A stretch of 64,000 nucleotides of DNA. Origin: Halobacteriovorax sp. (lineage in GTDB: Bacteria; Bdellovibrionota; Bacteriovoracia; Bacteriovoracales; Bacteriovoracaceae). Location of the stretch: NCBI GenBank assembly GCA_002720865.1, contig PBIO01000014.1, positions 1,053,793 to 1,117,792 on the forward strand, given 5' to 3'. Below, in pieces: positions 6,374-60,287 of this stretch (the first letter of the stretch is position 1; each line of letters opens with the position of its first letter). Under the pieces are notes generated by a model that saw only the letters and a list, made by a program, of their open reading frames with translations, made no database searches and was not told the origin of the DNA. Position numbers and translations under genes: made by a program.

Positions 6374-6400
6374 TGCATATTTGCAAGTGACCAGGTACCT
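6374..6400 (-). repeat. dispersed AGGTACCTGG repeat, copy 1
   Basis: Read on the minus strand this is AGGTACCTGGTCACTTG followed by an AT-rich tail ending in TGCA. It matches the other copies except for one base in the TTACTTG half. It lies between the divergent genes at 6338 and 6422, 22 bases before the reductase start, so it could affect either promoter. An adjacent AGTACCT partial copy is seen at 6401-6407. Confidence 0.7.
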
Positions 6401-8345: not shown

Positions 8346-9683
8346 TCATTTTTGCGGCGGCCGGCTAGGCTGACCAGGTACCGAAGACTCGGGCCCTTGT
8401 TCTTGCTTAGGCCAATCTTTCCAATGAAGAGGTTTGTCTTCTTCCCATAGTTCTGGGTTAATGCCATAGATGCATTGGTTATCATCGCGCCAGCACTGTC
8501 CGATCATAAGGTATTCAGCTTCTTCGTTCGTTTCATTTATGAAAGTGTGGAGCTTTCCGGTTCCAGCAGGAAGGGCGCAGGAATCGCCCGGGTTCATTTC
8601 ATAGCGGTGCCCATCAATCCAAGCTTCTATCTTGCCCTTTAGGACATAGATGAATTCCTCTTCCGTTGATTCACAGTGAGGAATGCCAGAGCGATGCCCG
8701 GGCATAAGAATGGCATGATGAAGGGCCACACGCTGGGCCCCTAAGGTGCGCCCAAGGTCTCGAACTTTTAAAAAATAATGAAGAGGCTCATCAGGACCTC
8801 CTGCATCTTTTTGCTCGATATCTAAAATATTCTTATGAGTAGTAAACGCCGGAGGTTCGGGTCTATCGGCCCAAAAATAACCACCTTCCTTGCATTCTTC
8901 ATTTCGCGCCGGATGTTCCGGGTAGTAGATTTTATCGTCCTTTTGATTTTGCTCCCCAATCACAATCATCACCACATCTTCTTTGCTATTATTATAAACC
9001 GCGTGGGCCAAATTCGAATTTGGAGGAAAGAAGATAATATCATTTGCTTTTGCCCGGTGAAGCTTTCCATTAACCCAAATATCGGGAGTGCCCTCTAAGA
9101 CGTAGACAAATTCCTCTTCAATTAAATGAGCATGAGGCCAAGAGGACCTCTTTCCAGGGGCAAGGGTTTCATGATGAATCCCAAGTTCCACAAGACCTAA
9201 GTCTGATCCAAGGGAAGCGCCCTTGGCAAAAGTTTCATCGGAGCCATTATAAAAAGCATAAAAATTTTGATCCACAATCGACGAGTGATGGCGAATAAAC
9301 TCTGGCCTTGAATCAAGAGATCTAGGCAAGGCCGGACGGGGACCGCCGTATTCAAATAAGTATTCCTTTTTAATTTTAAAATCGGATGGATGAGAGATGA
9401 CTTGAAACTCGTCTTCGTAAAGAGGAGAGTCTGGTCTTTCGGCCAAAAGCATAGAGGCCTTCCCTTCCACCACGGAGTAATGCCAATCTTTTAATCCGCT
9501 ATCCGCATATTTTTTAAGACCGGCCTTGGTAAAAAAGGAAATGGCCCCGGGGTATTTTTCTCCCACTTTTGGTAGCCAAGTGCCATCCGGTTTTGAGGAG
9601 CGAAGGTCAGAATCACGGGGAACTTGTTTATCTAGTTCTTCGTAGATTCCTTTAGAATTTAGGGTGAAGCGGAATAAGTTCAT
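8346..9683 (-). CDS. bicupin-domain protein
   Basis: 445 aa with two complete cupin barrels. The first is at about 165-250 (HAHLIEEEFVYVLEG ... FFPPNSNLAHAV), the second at about 315-400 (PHCESTEEEFIYVLKG ... ALPAGTGKLHTF). Each has the His-His-Glu and later His set that binds a metal ion. The N-terminal 150 residues are a divergent domain. Bicupins act as dioxygenases, decarboxylases or sugar isomerases in the cytoplasm; the substrate is not predictable. The last codons contain GACCAGGTACC (8372-8382), the core of the dispersed repeat. Confidence 0.8.
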   Translation of the reverse strand: MNLFRFTLNSKGIYEELDKQVPRDSDLRSSKPDGTWLPKVGEKYPGAISFFTKAGLKKYADSGLKDWHYSVVEGKASMLLAERPDSPLYEDEFQVISHPSDFKIKKEYLFEYGGPRPALPRSLDSRPEFIRHHSSIVDQNFYAFYNGSDETFAKGASLGSDLGLVELGIHHETLAPGKRSSWPHAHLIEEEFVYVLEGTPDIWVNGKLHRAKANDIIFFPPNSNLAHAVYNNSKEDVVMIVIGEQNQKDDKIYYPEHPARNEECKEGGYFWADRPEPPAFTTHKNILDIEQKDAGGPDEPLHYFLKVRDLGRTLGAQRVALHHAILMPGHRSGIPHCESTEEEFIYVLKGKIEAWIDGHRYEMNPGDSCALPAGTGKLHTFINETNEEAEYLMIGQCWRDDNQCIYGINPELWEEDKPLHWKDWPKQEQGPESSVPGQPSRPPQK

Positions 9684-28479: not shown

Positions 28480-29199
28480 GTGAAACTATCAGCACCTATT
28501 TATGTATTGAAGAAGAAGGCCCGGGAGCTTAAGCGCTCGGAAGGTATTTCCTTGAATGAGGCCTTAGATGTGGTGGCACGGGAGGAAGGGTTTTCTTCTT
28601 GGAGCCTGCTTGCCAGTAAAAGCGAGGAGCTTTTGCCTCGGGAGCAAGGGGAGATTCTTGGTTTTTTAAATGCTGGGGATCTTATGCTTATTGGGGCCAG
28701 ACCTGGGCATGGGAAGACGACTTTTGCCCTTGAGCTTTTGGTGCAAGGGATGAGGGAGAAACGGCAGTGTTTTTTCTTTTCTCTAGAGTACACGTTTAAG
28801 GATGTGCTTTCTAAGGTGGCCGATTTAGATACCAGTATAGGGGCGAATAATGAGTATCTTCATTTTGATTTTTCTGATGAGATCAGCGCCAGCTATATTA
28901 TAGAGAAGGTAACCCCCGGAGCCGTGGTTGTGGTGGATTATCTTCAGCTCCTGGATCAGGTAAGGAGTAAGCCTAGCTTACAGAGTCAGGTTTCAGAGCT
29001 TGAGGAGTTCGCTCGTGAGAGTGGGTGCGTCTTGATTTTTATAAGTCAGGTTGACCGAGAGGCGGATGGGAAGAAGCCTGGTCTTTCGGATGTGCGGCTT
29101 CCTAATGCGCTTGATTTGGATGTGTTTAATAAAGCGCTCTTTATTCATGAGGGGAAGAAGTACTTTGTTAGACCCGAGGTACCTGGTTACTTGCTATAA
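28480..29199 (+). CDS. DnaB/RecA-fold ATPase
   Basis: About 239 aa from GTG at 28480, which has GGAGG 5 bases upstream. Residues 1-50 carry a short KKKARELKRSEGISLNEAL-type helical motif ending in WSLLASK, seen before various enzymes. The rest is the DnaB C-terminal ATPase fold: Walker A GARPGHGKTT at about 71 and Walker B VVVDYLQLLD at about 150. There is no primase-binding N-domain, so it is not the replicative helicase. The final codons (PGYL) are encoded by a dispersed repeat. It lies between the two island regions and is followed by its own terminator. Confidence 0.75.
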   Translation: MKLSAPIYVLKKKARELKRSEGISLNEALDVVAREEGFSSWSLLASKSEELLPREQGEILGFLNAGDLMLIGARPGHGKTTFALELLVQGMREKRQCFFFSLEYTFKDVLSKVADLDTSIGANNEYLHFDFSDEISASYIIEKVTPGAVVVVDYLQLLDQVRSKPSLQSQVSELEEFARESGCVLIFISQVDREADGKKPGLSDVRLPNALDLDVFNKALFIHEGKKYFVRPEVPGYLL

Positions 29200-39616: not shown

Positions 39617-39645
39617 GTACCTGGTTACTTGTAAAAATGAAAATG
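39615..39645 (+). repeat. dispersed AGGTACCTGG repeat, copy 3
   Basis: AGGTACCTGGTTACTTG followed by TAAAAATGAAAATG. The first two bases belong to the stop codon of the AraC gene, and the tail contains the start codon of the kinase-like gene at 39637. It is in direct orientation with copy 4 at 40378, so the two bracket that gene. Confidence 0.8.
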
Positions 39646-40371
39646 TTCCTTAAAGAAAACACTAACCCAAATAGCACGTCTCTTCTAAATGAAGTGAGGG
39701 GACTTGCTGAGCTTAGAAAATTTCAGGATGTTCATAAGCTTCGCATTCCTTTGGTGGAAGAATTTACTCAGCAATTTATAAAGATGGAGAAGATTGATTC
39801 GACTTCGCCTACGAAGGAGGGCTGGATTCGTTTGGCCCAGGGGCTGGCGGCCCTTCATGGAGTGCATCAGGAGCAGTTTGGATTTGAGGAAGATAATTAT
39901 ATTGGTTTGAATAAACAGAAGAACACTCCCTGTGATGATTGGGGAGAGTTTTATTATGAGTGCCGTTTGCTCTTTCAGGTGGAGCTTATATCAAATCAAT
40001 CCGTGAAGGATGAGTTAGCTGCAATTTTAAAGTCTAAAAAATCTGAGCTTATTAAAAAGCTTAATGAGCATAATCCTTCGGCCAGTTTACTTCATGGGGA
40101 TCTATGGTCAGGCAATGTGATGTTTGATGAATCTGGACCTTGGCTTATTGACCCGGCCGTTTACTACGGGGACCGAGAAACCGATCTTGCCATGACCGAA
40201 GTCTTCGGCGGCTTTCCCCCTATCTTTTACGAGACCTACTTCTCTCTCTACAAAAAGCCTGAAGGCTATGACTATCGAAACGGCCTTTACAAGCTCTACC
40301 ATATCTTAAATCACTATAATCTTTTCGGTGATTCCTACCTCGGGCAGTTAAGGGCGCTTCTTCGATTTTAG
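39637..40371 (+). CDS. fructosamine/ketosamine-3-kinase-like protein, N-terminally truncated
   Basis: 244 aa. FLKENTN at the start corresponds to the Lys-containing strand of the kinase N-lobe. LLHGDLWSGNVMF (about 150-162) is the catalytic loop with Asp, and LIDPAVYYGDRETDLAM (about 170-186) the metal-binding segment of the fructosamine kinase family, which removes sugar adducts from proteins. Family members are about 280-290 aa. The missing 30-40 residues would include the first strands and the nucleotide-binding loop. The gene begins inside a dispersed repeat, so truncation by repeat insertion is likely. Confidence 0.75.
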   Translation: MKMFLKENTNPNSTSLLNEVRGLAELRKFQDVHKLRIPLVEEFTQQFIKMEKIDSTSPTKEGWIRLAQGLAALHGVHQEQFGFEEDNYIGLNKQKNTPCDDWGEFYYECRLLFQVELISNQSVKDELAAILKSKKSELIKKLNEHNPSASLLHGDLWSGNVMFDESGPWLIDPAVYYGDRETDLAMTEVFGGFPPIFYETYFSLYKKPEGYDYRNGLYKLYHILNHYNLFGDSYLGQLRALLRF

Positions 40372-40377
40372 GCCATT

Positions 40378-40423
40378 AGGTACCTGGCTGGCCGGGACAG
40401 GCTTACTTGCTATAGTGAAAAAT
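40378..40423 (+). repeat. dispersed AGGTACCTGG repeat, copy 4 (with 15-base insertion)
   Basis: AGGTACCTGG and TTACTTGCTATAGTG are separated by 15 extra bases (40388-40402) rich in G and C. It begins 6 bases after the kinase-like gene stop, and its right end runs into the 3' end of the next minus-strand gene. It may be a longer version of the element, or one with an insertion. Confidence 0.65.
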
Positions 40424-45472: not shown

Positions 45473-45492
45473 AAAAGGTACCTGGCACCTTT
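45473..45492. repeat. variant dispersed repeat, hairpin form
   Basis: AAAAGGTACCTGGCACCTTT. The arms AAAGGTACC and GGCACCTTT are complementary except for one pair. It shares AGGTACCTGG with the other copies but not the TTACTTG half. It lies between the divergent kinase and FKBP genes. The palindromic form is close to REP-like elements associated with RAYT enzymes. Confidence 0.6.
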
Positions 45493-49020: not shown

Positions 49021-49051
49021 ATATTTCAAATATACAAGTAACCAGGTACCT
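49021..49051 (-). repeat. dispersed AGGTACCTGG repeat, copy 5
   Basis: On the minus strand AGGTACCTGGTTACTTG is followed by TATATTTGAAATAT. Its first bases overlap the stop codon of the thioesterase gene. This stop-codon overlap is also seen for copy 3, and copy 2 supplies a gene end. Confidence 0.8.
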
Positions 49052-59639: not shown

Positions 59640-59670
59640 AGGTACCTGGTTACTTGTAAATTTGAAAAAA
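59640..59670 (+). repeat. dispersed AGGTACCTGG repeat, copy 6, next to the RAYT gene
   Basis: AGGTACCTGGTTACTTG, then TAAATTTGAAAAAA. It lies 16 bases upstream of the BtuF-like start and about 70 bases before the start of the RAYT transposase gene. Repeats of this kind normally sit beside the transposase that moves them. Confidence 0.8.
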
Positions 59671-59741
59671 AACTTAGATTTTAAGCAAGAATTTTAGATT
59701 TTCACTAACCTAATGGACTAAGAAAGCCTTGGAGGTGCTTT

Positions 59742-60287
59742 ATGCCAAGAAAAGACTTAATTAGAACAAATGAATTTCCCTACCACGTAACAGCTAGATG
59801 CCATAATAAGGAGTGGTTTGAGCTACCACTATCTATAGTTTGGAAGTTAGCCGAGTATAGCCTAAAAGAGGCTCATGAAATGTTTCCAATAGAACTGATT
59901 AATTTTGTTCTCATGAGCAATCACTATCATATGATTTTAATTACTCCTGAAGCGAATCTCGATAAATTCATGCGCGAGTTTAATAGACGACTAACTCTTA
60001 GGATTCACCGTTATGCGGGAACAGTGAATCAAGTCTTCGGCGGGCGTTATAAATGGTGTGTAATTTCAGCGAACAATTATTTTATGAACTGCTATCGTTA
60101 TGTTTATCAGAATCCAATTAGAGCTGGCATTGTAAAAAGATGCGAAGATTATCCTTACTCTACGCTTAGATTTATCATCAAAGGAAAACAATTCTCTATT
60201 CCTATTTATGACCGTTACGGCTTTAAAGACGAGTGGGGACTGGCTTGGCTTAATGAAAAAGTAGAACTGCCTAATTGTTTTCGTTAA
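59742..60287 (+). CDS. REP-associated tyrosine transposase (RAYT, IS200-like Y1 family)
   Basis: 181 aa. PYHVTARCHNKEWF (about 14-27) and VLMSNHYHMILITP (about 50-63, with the HxH metal site) are the two halves of the Y1/HUH nuclease. FMREFNRRLT, FGGRYKWCVI and NNYFMNCYRYVYQNPIRAGIV (about 110-130) supply the catalytic Tyr. RAYTs cut and join single-stranded DNA at REP-type palindromes and do not carry IS ends. A start with GGAGG 8 bases upstream supports expression. The 3' end overlaps the convergent protease gene by 17 bases. Confidence 0.92.
   Translation: MPRKDLIRTNEFPYHVTARCHNKEWFELPLSIVWKLAEYSLKEAHEMFPIELINFVLMSNHYHMILITPEANLDKFMREFNRRLTLRIHRYAGTVNQVFGGRYKWCVISANNYFMNCYRYVYQNPIRAGIVKRCEDYPYSTLRFIIKGKQFSIPIYDRYGFKDEWGLAWLNEKVELPNCFR

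What the first reader, a model, noticed from the sequence alone, without database searches (positions are those of the whole stretch)
59640..60287. Dispersed GGTACC repeat family and its probable RAYT mobiliser
At least six sites share AGGTACCTGG, and five of them also TTACTTG plus an AT-rich tail ending in TGAAA: 6374, 29177, 39615, 40378, 49021 and 59640. A hairpin variant sits at 45473. A complete RAYT gene lies about 70 bases from the last copy. RAYTs are known to accompany REP-type repeats, so this looks like a REP family of a low-GC predator-type genome. All copies lie outside the islands.
Basis: partly seen in the sequence, partly recalled or inferred. Interest (0 to 1): 0.66.

Follow-up and report, generated by a model that had tools for sequence, protein, structure and literature searches.

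The report
RAYT end-repeats scattered between genes
A 17-base sequence scattered between genes in this low-GC, predator-related bacterium is the end-repeat of a small HUH "RAYT" transposase gene lying beside one copy; almost every transposase of this type in the lineage has its own private end-repeat, a relative of the known REP/RAYT and TIR/TIRYT systems rather than a new kind of element.

Summary
The repeat is real. AGGTACCTGGTTACTTG occurs 13 times exactly and 5 more times with one mismatch in the 4.9-Mb genome, five of these in the window. Among 95 genomes of the family it is abundant only in the three of this genus (23, 29 and 17 hits at two or fewer mismatches); the rest are at control level. 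It is the terminal inverted repeat (TIR) of the window's RAYT: the 70%-identical orthologue in a congener has it on both sides, about 110 bases before the ATG and directly after the stop. Across the phylum 45 of 54 RAYTs have a private TIR. Copies are extragenic (73 of 74).

Corrections: the window RAYT is 3'-truncated and has lost its downstream TIR; the repeat has no GTAG foot and no predicted stable hairpin, so it is not a canonical REP; copies are few. Closest known kind: REPtron/TIRtron. New here are the lineage, the shared AGGTRCC tip, and tandem duplications (11 of 76 copies) at the outer tip that look like traces of activity. Mobilisation itself is inferred.

The parts
6384..6400 (-). 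TIR-family copy, one mismatch (AGGTACCTGGTCACTTG); outer tip carries a perfect 7-bp tandem duplication TACTAGG
29177..29193 (+). TIR-family copy, exact; homology of the upstream gene to G002 stops at its first base and the repeat supplies the gene's new 3' end and stop codon
39615..39631 (+). TIR-family copy, exact; supplies the stop codon of the AraC-like ORF upstream and abuts a fructosamine-kinase ORF whose Pfam match starts at profile position 42
40378..40409 (+). Variant copy with 15-base GC-rich insert (AGGTACCTGGCTGGCCGGGACAGGCTTACTTG); three copies of this variant in the genome
45470..45492 (-). Copy of a different family: TIR of the RAYT on contig C9 (AAAGGTGCCAGGTACCTTTTGGG)
49035..49051 (-). 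TIR-family copy, exact; supplies the stop codon of the 4HBT thioesterase gene
59640..59656 (+). TIR-family copy, exact: upstream terminal repeat of the RAYT unit (starts 102 bases before the ATG)
59742..60287 (+). RAYT gene (HUH Y1 transposase-like; HYH at residues 61-63, Tyr120 in Y---NP), 3'-truncated relative to orthologue G002:C2:454122

Best explanation
The repeat is the terminal inverted repeat of a RAYT (TnpAREP-like HUH single-tyrosine transposase) unit, spread through intergenic DNA as a miniature, non-autonomous element. Shown: the orthologous RAYT unit is bracketed by this sequence in inverted orientation; nearly every RAYT in the lineage has its own TIR at the same two positions; several TIRs have their own dispersed families; copies are extragenic; presence and position differ between congeners. 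Inferred: the RAYT binds one strand of the TIR as single-stranded DNA, nicks near its outer tip through Tyr120, and rejoins the ends, scattering solo TIRs and inverted TIR pairs. Tandem duplications of flank plus TIR tip, found only at the outer side, fit cutting or copying at that edge. The window RAYT is probably decaying, so present mobility may depend on a relative (for example the C31 RAYT, whose TIR GGTACGTGGTTACTT is similar) or have ceased.
For: Orthologue in G002: RAYT flanked by AAGGTACCTGGTTACTTG upstream and AAGGTACCTGGTCACTTG downstream. Three other RAYTs in the genome have private TIRs with families of 8, 4 and 13 copies. 45 of 54 RAYT loci have an upstream/downstream inverted repeat above the 95th percentile of mismatched locus pairs; RAYT-TIR Mantel r = 0.22, P = 0.0004. 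A test on another genus: the TIR of a G013 RAYT has 17 copies in G013, 12 of them in inward pairs, and none in its sister species G057 or two other genomes. Genus-restricted abundance. 73 of 74 copies extragenic against 22% expected. Outer-tip tandem duplications in 11 of 76 copies, 0 on the inner side, 0.17 expected. The only solved-structure relative is E. coli TnpAREP 4er8, E = 7.6e-9. The RAYT unit sits beside the 4HBT gene in G002 but not at that place in G000.
Against: No clean empty site with both flanks intact was found; presence/absence cases involve longer indels. The window TIR folds to no stable hairpin. No RAYT was found in G001 despite 17 copies. Some copies sit at orthologous positions in congeners with the 17-mer conserved while flanks are 73-85% identical, which could mean function or old age rather than active spread, although these were found by searching for that 17-mer. 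No cleavage or transposition was measured.
Confidence: 0.82

Rival explanations
1. The 17-mer is a binding site for a host regulator or nucleoid protein; its presence at RAYT ends is borrowed.
For: AGGTACCT is a palindrome; five copies are at orthologous positions between species with 16-17 of 17 bases kept while flanks are 73-85% identical; many copies lie at gene boundaries.
Against: The other RAYTs of the genome and phylum have different TIRs in the same two positions, so the link is to the RAYT and not to one DNA-binding protein. Copies lie mostly at gene 3' ends (42 of 74 within 60 bp) rather than 5' ends (12 of 74). The orthologous cases were found by searching for the 17-mer, so they are biased towards conservation.
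Confidence: 0.08
2. Inward-facing TIR pairs bound mobile gene cassettes that the RAYT moves in trans, like mobile insertion cassettes of other IS families.
For: Close inward pairs bracket non-transposase genes: L042 (924 bp, beta-barrel-like protein), L035 (1686 bp, cupin and methyltransferase beside a tRNA), L040 (555 bp), L189 in G001 (814 bp, YceI-like). At the L042 site G001 has only the left TIR, and neither G001 nor G002 encodes the gene.
Against: The YceI-like gene of L189 is resident in G000 next to the same tRNA without any TIR, so that pair arose by separate TIR insertions or rearrangement. In G013 the close pairs other than the RAYT unit are only 54-143 bp, with no room for a gene. 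TIR types at the two ends of L042 differ.
Confidence: 0.09
3. Chance similarity or an ordinary terminator or intergenic motif.
For: Short sequence, often next to terminators.
Against: Shuffle expectations; reversed-pattern controls at zero for two mismatches in G000 and G002; 30-bp unit shared between unrelated loci.
Confidence: 0.01

Closest known systems
TIRtron / TIRYT (Di Nocera et al. 2013, PMC3733652)
   Same: RAYT-like gene flanked by terminal inverted repeats unrelated to GTAG REPs; moderately abundant TIR families; several TIRYT genes per genome with different TIRs.
   Different: Their common TIR motif is GGGGWSAS and 20 of their 26 TIRYTs fall in subclass 2.1 with a C-terminal HTH domain (PMC6006769); here the shared tip is AGGTRCC, the proteins are about 200 aa with no extra Pfam domain, and the lineage was not found by name in those papers.
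REP/REPIN-RAYT REPtrons (Nunvar 2010 PMC2817692; Bertels and Rainey 2011 PMC3116915)
   Same: RAYT with two flanking inverted repeats; private repeat family per RAYT; extragenic copies; some inverted doublets.
   Different: No GT[AG]G foot, no stable hairpin in the window family, tens rather than hundreds of copies, mostly singlets in the window family.
E. coli TnpAREP (structure 4er8)
   Same: Only solved relative by sequence; HUH motif and Y---NP catalytic tyrosine.
   Different: GTAG-contact residues W94, Q95, E100, H101 are replaced by F, G, W, T/C in the aligned profile.
IS200/IS605 insertion sequences
   Same: HUH Y1 transposase, proposed single-strand mechanism.
   Different: No near-identical complete element copies; four RAYTs in the genome are only about 45% identical.

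Membership tests
RAYT / TnpAREP protein | HUH motif and single catalytic tyrosine in Y---NP | tested here: met
   H61-Y-H63 and Y120/N124/P125, invariant or nearly so in 54 aligned proteins; Pfam Y1_Tnp over cut-off; 4er8 at E 7.6e-9
RAYT / TnpAREP protein | NCBIfam equivalog NF047646 above curated cut-off (80 bits) | tested here: not met
   Best match of all five proteins tested but 61-72 bits; divergent member. This is an annotation cut-off, not a functional criterion
RAYT / TnpAREP protein | Low copy number, flanked by its own inverted repeats | tested here: met
   4 divergent genes in the genome; 45 of 54 loci in the phylum with private TIRs; window copy itself has lost the downstream repeat
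RAYT / TnpAREP protein | Cleaves its own repeat as single-stranded DNA | not testable with these tools
   needs protein and oligonucleotides
Canonical GTAG REP | GT[AG]G tetranucleotide at the foot | tested here: not met
   Repeat reads TTAGGTACCTGGTTACTTG; contact residues for GTAG replaced
Canonical GTAG REP | Stable stem-loop | tested here: not met
   Window TIR folds at 0.0 kcal/mol with DNA parameters; some other TIRs fold well, mean z -0.51 +/- 0.22 over 44
Canonical GTAG REP | Extragenic location | tested here: met
   73 of 74 copies
Canonical GTAG REP | High copy number (usually >100, PMC2817692) | tested here: not met
   17-29 copies per genome
REPIN | Repeats predominantly as inverted doublets | tested here: inconclusive
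   Few inward doublets in the window family (40-58 bp in G000/G001), but inward pairs dominate in G013
TIRtron / TIRYT | Terminal inverted repeats unrelated to GTAG REPs around the gene, with dispersed copies | tested here: met
TIRtron / TIRYT | GGGGWSAS motif in the TIR (common, not universal, in the published set) | tested here: not met
   No GGGG in AGGTACCTGGTTACTTG; shared tip is AGGTRCC
TIRtron / TIRYT | C-terminal HTH extension (subclass 2.1, most published TIRYTs) | tested here: not met
   Pfam scan finds only Y1_Tnp; relatives about 200 aa
IS200/IS605 insertion sequence | Several near-identical complete copies moving as a unit | tested here: not met
   Four RAYTs about 45% identical to the window protein

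The most novel reading that the evidence does not exclude
These RAYTs act at the outer tip of their TIRs, leaving short tandem duplications of flank plus TIR tip as a scar, and inward TIR pairs can carry a resident or accessory gene between them, so the RAYT system would reshape gene content at intergenic hot spots rather than only scatter miniature repeats.
Probability: 0.15. Interest if true: 0.68.

Novelty: new variant of a known kind. Interest (0 to 1): 0.45.

Why it matters
It extends RAYT-repeat partnerships to a predator-related, low-GC lineage and gives about 45 RAYT-TIR pairs in one phylum. That set would let the determinants of repeat recognition be read from co-variation; so far they rest on three experimentally studied systems (PMC8266576). 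The outer-tip duplications offer a sequence scar that can be counted without experiments, which bears on the open question of how RAYT repeats spread.

Tried and rejected
Clean empty sites: compared G000 with congeners G001 and G002 at the window and other loci. Presence/absence is clear in several cases but always with longer indels or one-sided synteny, so no exact insertion boundary or target duplication could be called. Gene-cassette idea: attractive at L042, but weakened by L189, whose gene is resident in G000 without TIRs. Hairpin as a general property: only about a third of TIRs fold clearly better than shuffles, and the window TIR not at all. Local clustering of copies (5 of 18 in 64 kb, P about 0.0002-0.0006): real in G000, but in G002 it vanishes when copies within 5 kb are merged, so no mechanism is proposed. 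The named-genome search gave only two relatives. Structure prediction was not run because the sequence match to 4er8 settled the fold family.

Full report
Observation. The window holds seven AGGTACCTGG sites, of which four continue exactly as AGGTACCTGGTTACTTG and a fifth with one change. Shuffled sequence would give 0.13 such matches. The site at 40378 is the same motif with a GC-rich insert between its halves. The site at 45473 is not a variant of this family: genome-wide search places it in the family of another RAYT.

Genome-wide. The window is G000:C14:1053793-1117792 of a 4.9-Mb, 33-contig assembly. The 17-mer occurs 13 times exactly and 5 times with one mismatch. In 95 genomes of the family (two mismatches allowed) it is abundant only in the three of the same genus: 23, 29 and 17; the others have 0-2, like the reversed control pattern. 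The nearest named relative is an uncultured Halobacteriovorax MAG, whose 628,588-base contig and RAYT flanks match those of G002.

The RAYT link. Four Y1-transposase genes lie in the genome, about 45% identical to the window protein. The other three are each bracketed by a private inverted repeat, upstream of the ATG by about 110 bases and within a few bases of the stop codon, and each of these repeats has a dispersed family of 4-13 copies. The window RAYT has only the upstream copy, but its 70%-identical orthologue in G002 has AAGGTACCTGGTTACTTG upstream and AAGGTACCTGGTCACTTG downstream, in inverted orientation. This identifies the window repeat as the RAYT's terminal repeat. Alignment shows that the window gene has lost its last ~18 residues, including a motif kept by nearly all of the relatives aligned, together with the downstream repeat.

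Generality. Of 54 RAYT loci from the phylum, 45 have an upstream/downstream inverted repeat scoring above 95% of mismatched locus pairs, at nearly constant positions; TIR similarity follows RAYT similarity (Mantel r = 0.22, P = 0.0004). Many tips share AGGTRCC. As an independent check, one TIR from another genus (G013) was chosen and searched: 17 copies in G013, 12 of them in six inward pairs (five of 54-143 bp, one being the RAYT unit), none in its sister species or in two other genomes.

What the copies look like. In the three congeners 73 of 74 copies lie outside ORFs, 42 of them within 60 bp of an ORF's 3' end. Several supply the stop codon of the upstream gene (window 29177, 39615, 49035). 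The repeated unit is about 30 bp, TTAGGTACCTGGTTACTTG-N6-TGAAA. Eleven of 76 copies carry a perfect 7-15 bp tandem duplication made of the outer flank plus the first bases of the repeat; none does so on the inner side, and 0.17 are expected. This asymmetry is the clearest trace of activity at the outer edge; that a RAYT nick causes it is inference.

Mobility. Copies differ between congeners: the copy near the tRNA-Cys in G001 is absent in G000, the 29177 copy interrupts homology with G002, and the RAYT unit sits beside the 4HBT gene in G002 but not there in G000. Other copies are shared at orthologous positions. No exact empty site was found.

Cassettes. Inward pairs bracket genes at L042, L035, L040 and L189. 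At L042 the congener G001 has one TIR and no gene, and the gene is absent from both congeners. But the L189 gene is resident in G000 without TIRs, so bracketing by separate insertions is the safer reading.

Comparison. The protein is a divergent TnpAREP/RAYT. The repeat fails the canonical REP tests of GTAG foot, stable stem-loop and high copy number, and the E. coli GTAG-contact residues are replaced. It fits the TIRtron/TIRYT arrangement of Di Nocera et al. 2013 (PMC3733652) but with a different TIR motif, no HTH extension, and in a lineage not named in the papers searched. I rate it a new variant of a known kind.

Noticed in passing
L042:6374-7297 (G000:C31:250372-251296): 924-bp segment with a beta-barrel-like protein gene between a TIR and an inverted long-insert TIR variant; G001 has only the left TIR there and no homologue.
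   Followed up: partly
window 39637-40371: Fructosamine-kinase ORF whose Pfam match starts at profile position 42, directly after the 39615 repeat; probable 5' truncation at the repeat.
   Followed up: partly
G001 (same genus): 17 repeat copies but no RAYT found, in an 81%-complete, 250-contig assembly; several of its contigs end close to a copy.
   Followed up: no
L157 region, G002:C2:454713-454790: Downstream TIR of the G002 RAYT is followed by a tandem array of TTTTTTAAGGTACC units (four tips).
   Followed up: partly
window 8374-8383 and flank: CGGTACCTGG...GGCCGGCCGCC...AAAAATGAAAAC, possibly a decayed long-insert copy at the 3' end of ORF 8346-9683.
   Followed up: no
window 6421, 29177; G002:C2:410987, 435940: Nucleotide synteny between G000 and G002 breaks within about 25 bp of repeat copies several times; could be intergenic bias or repeat-linked rearrangement.
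   Followed up: partly
G000:C14:661000-676000 (L037): Two copies 856 bp apart share a longer inner flank (TAGAAATGAAAA..GTGTCTCACGTT), suggesting a duplicated segment; a C31-type copy lies between them.
   Followed up: no
all four RAYT upstream ends in G000: A TGAAAAAA stretch lies a short way inside the upstream TIR of all four RAYTs, and TGAAA recurs in solo copies; role unknown.
   Followed up: no
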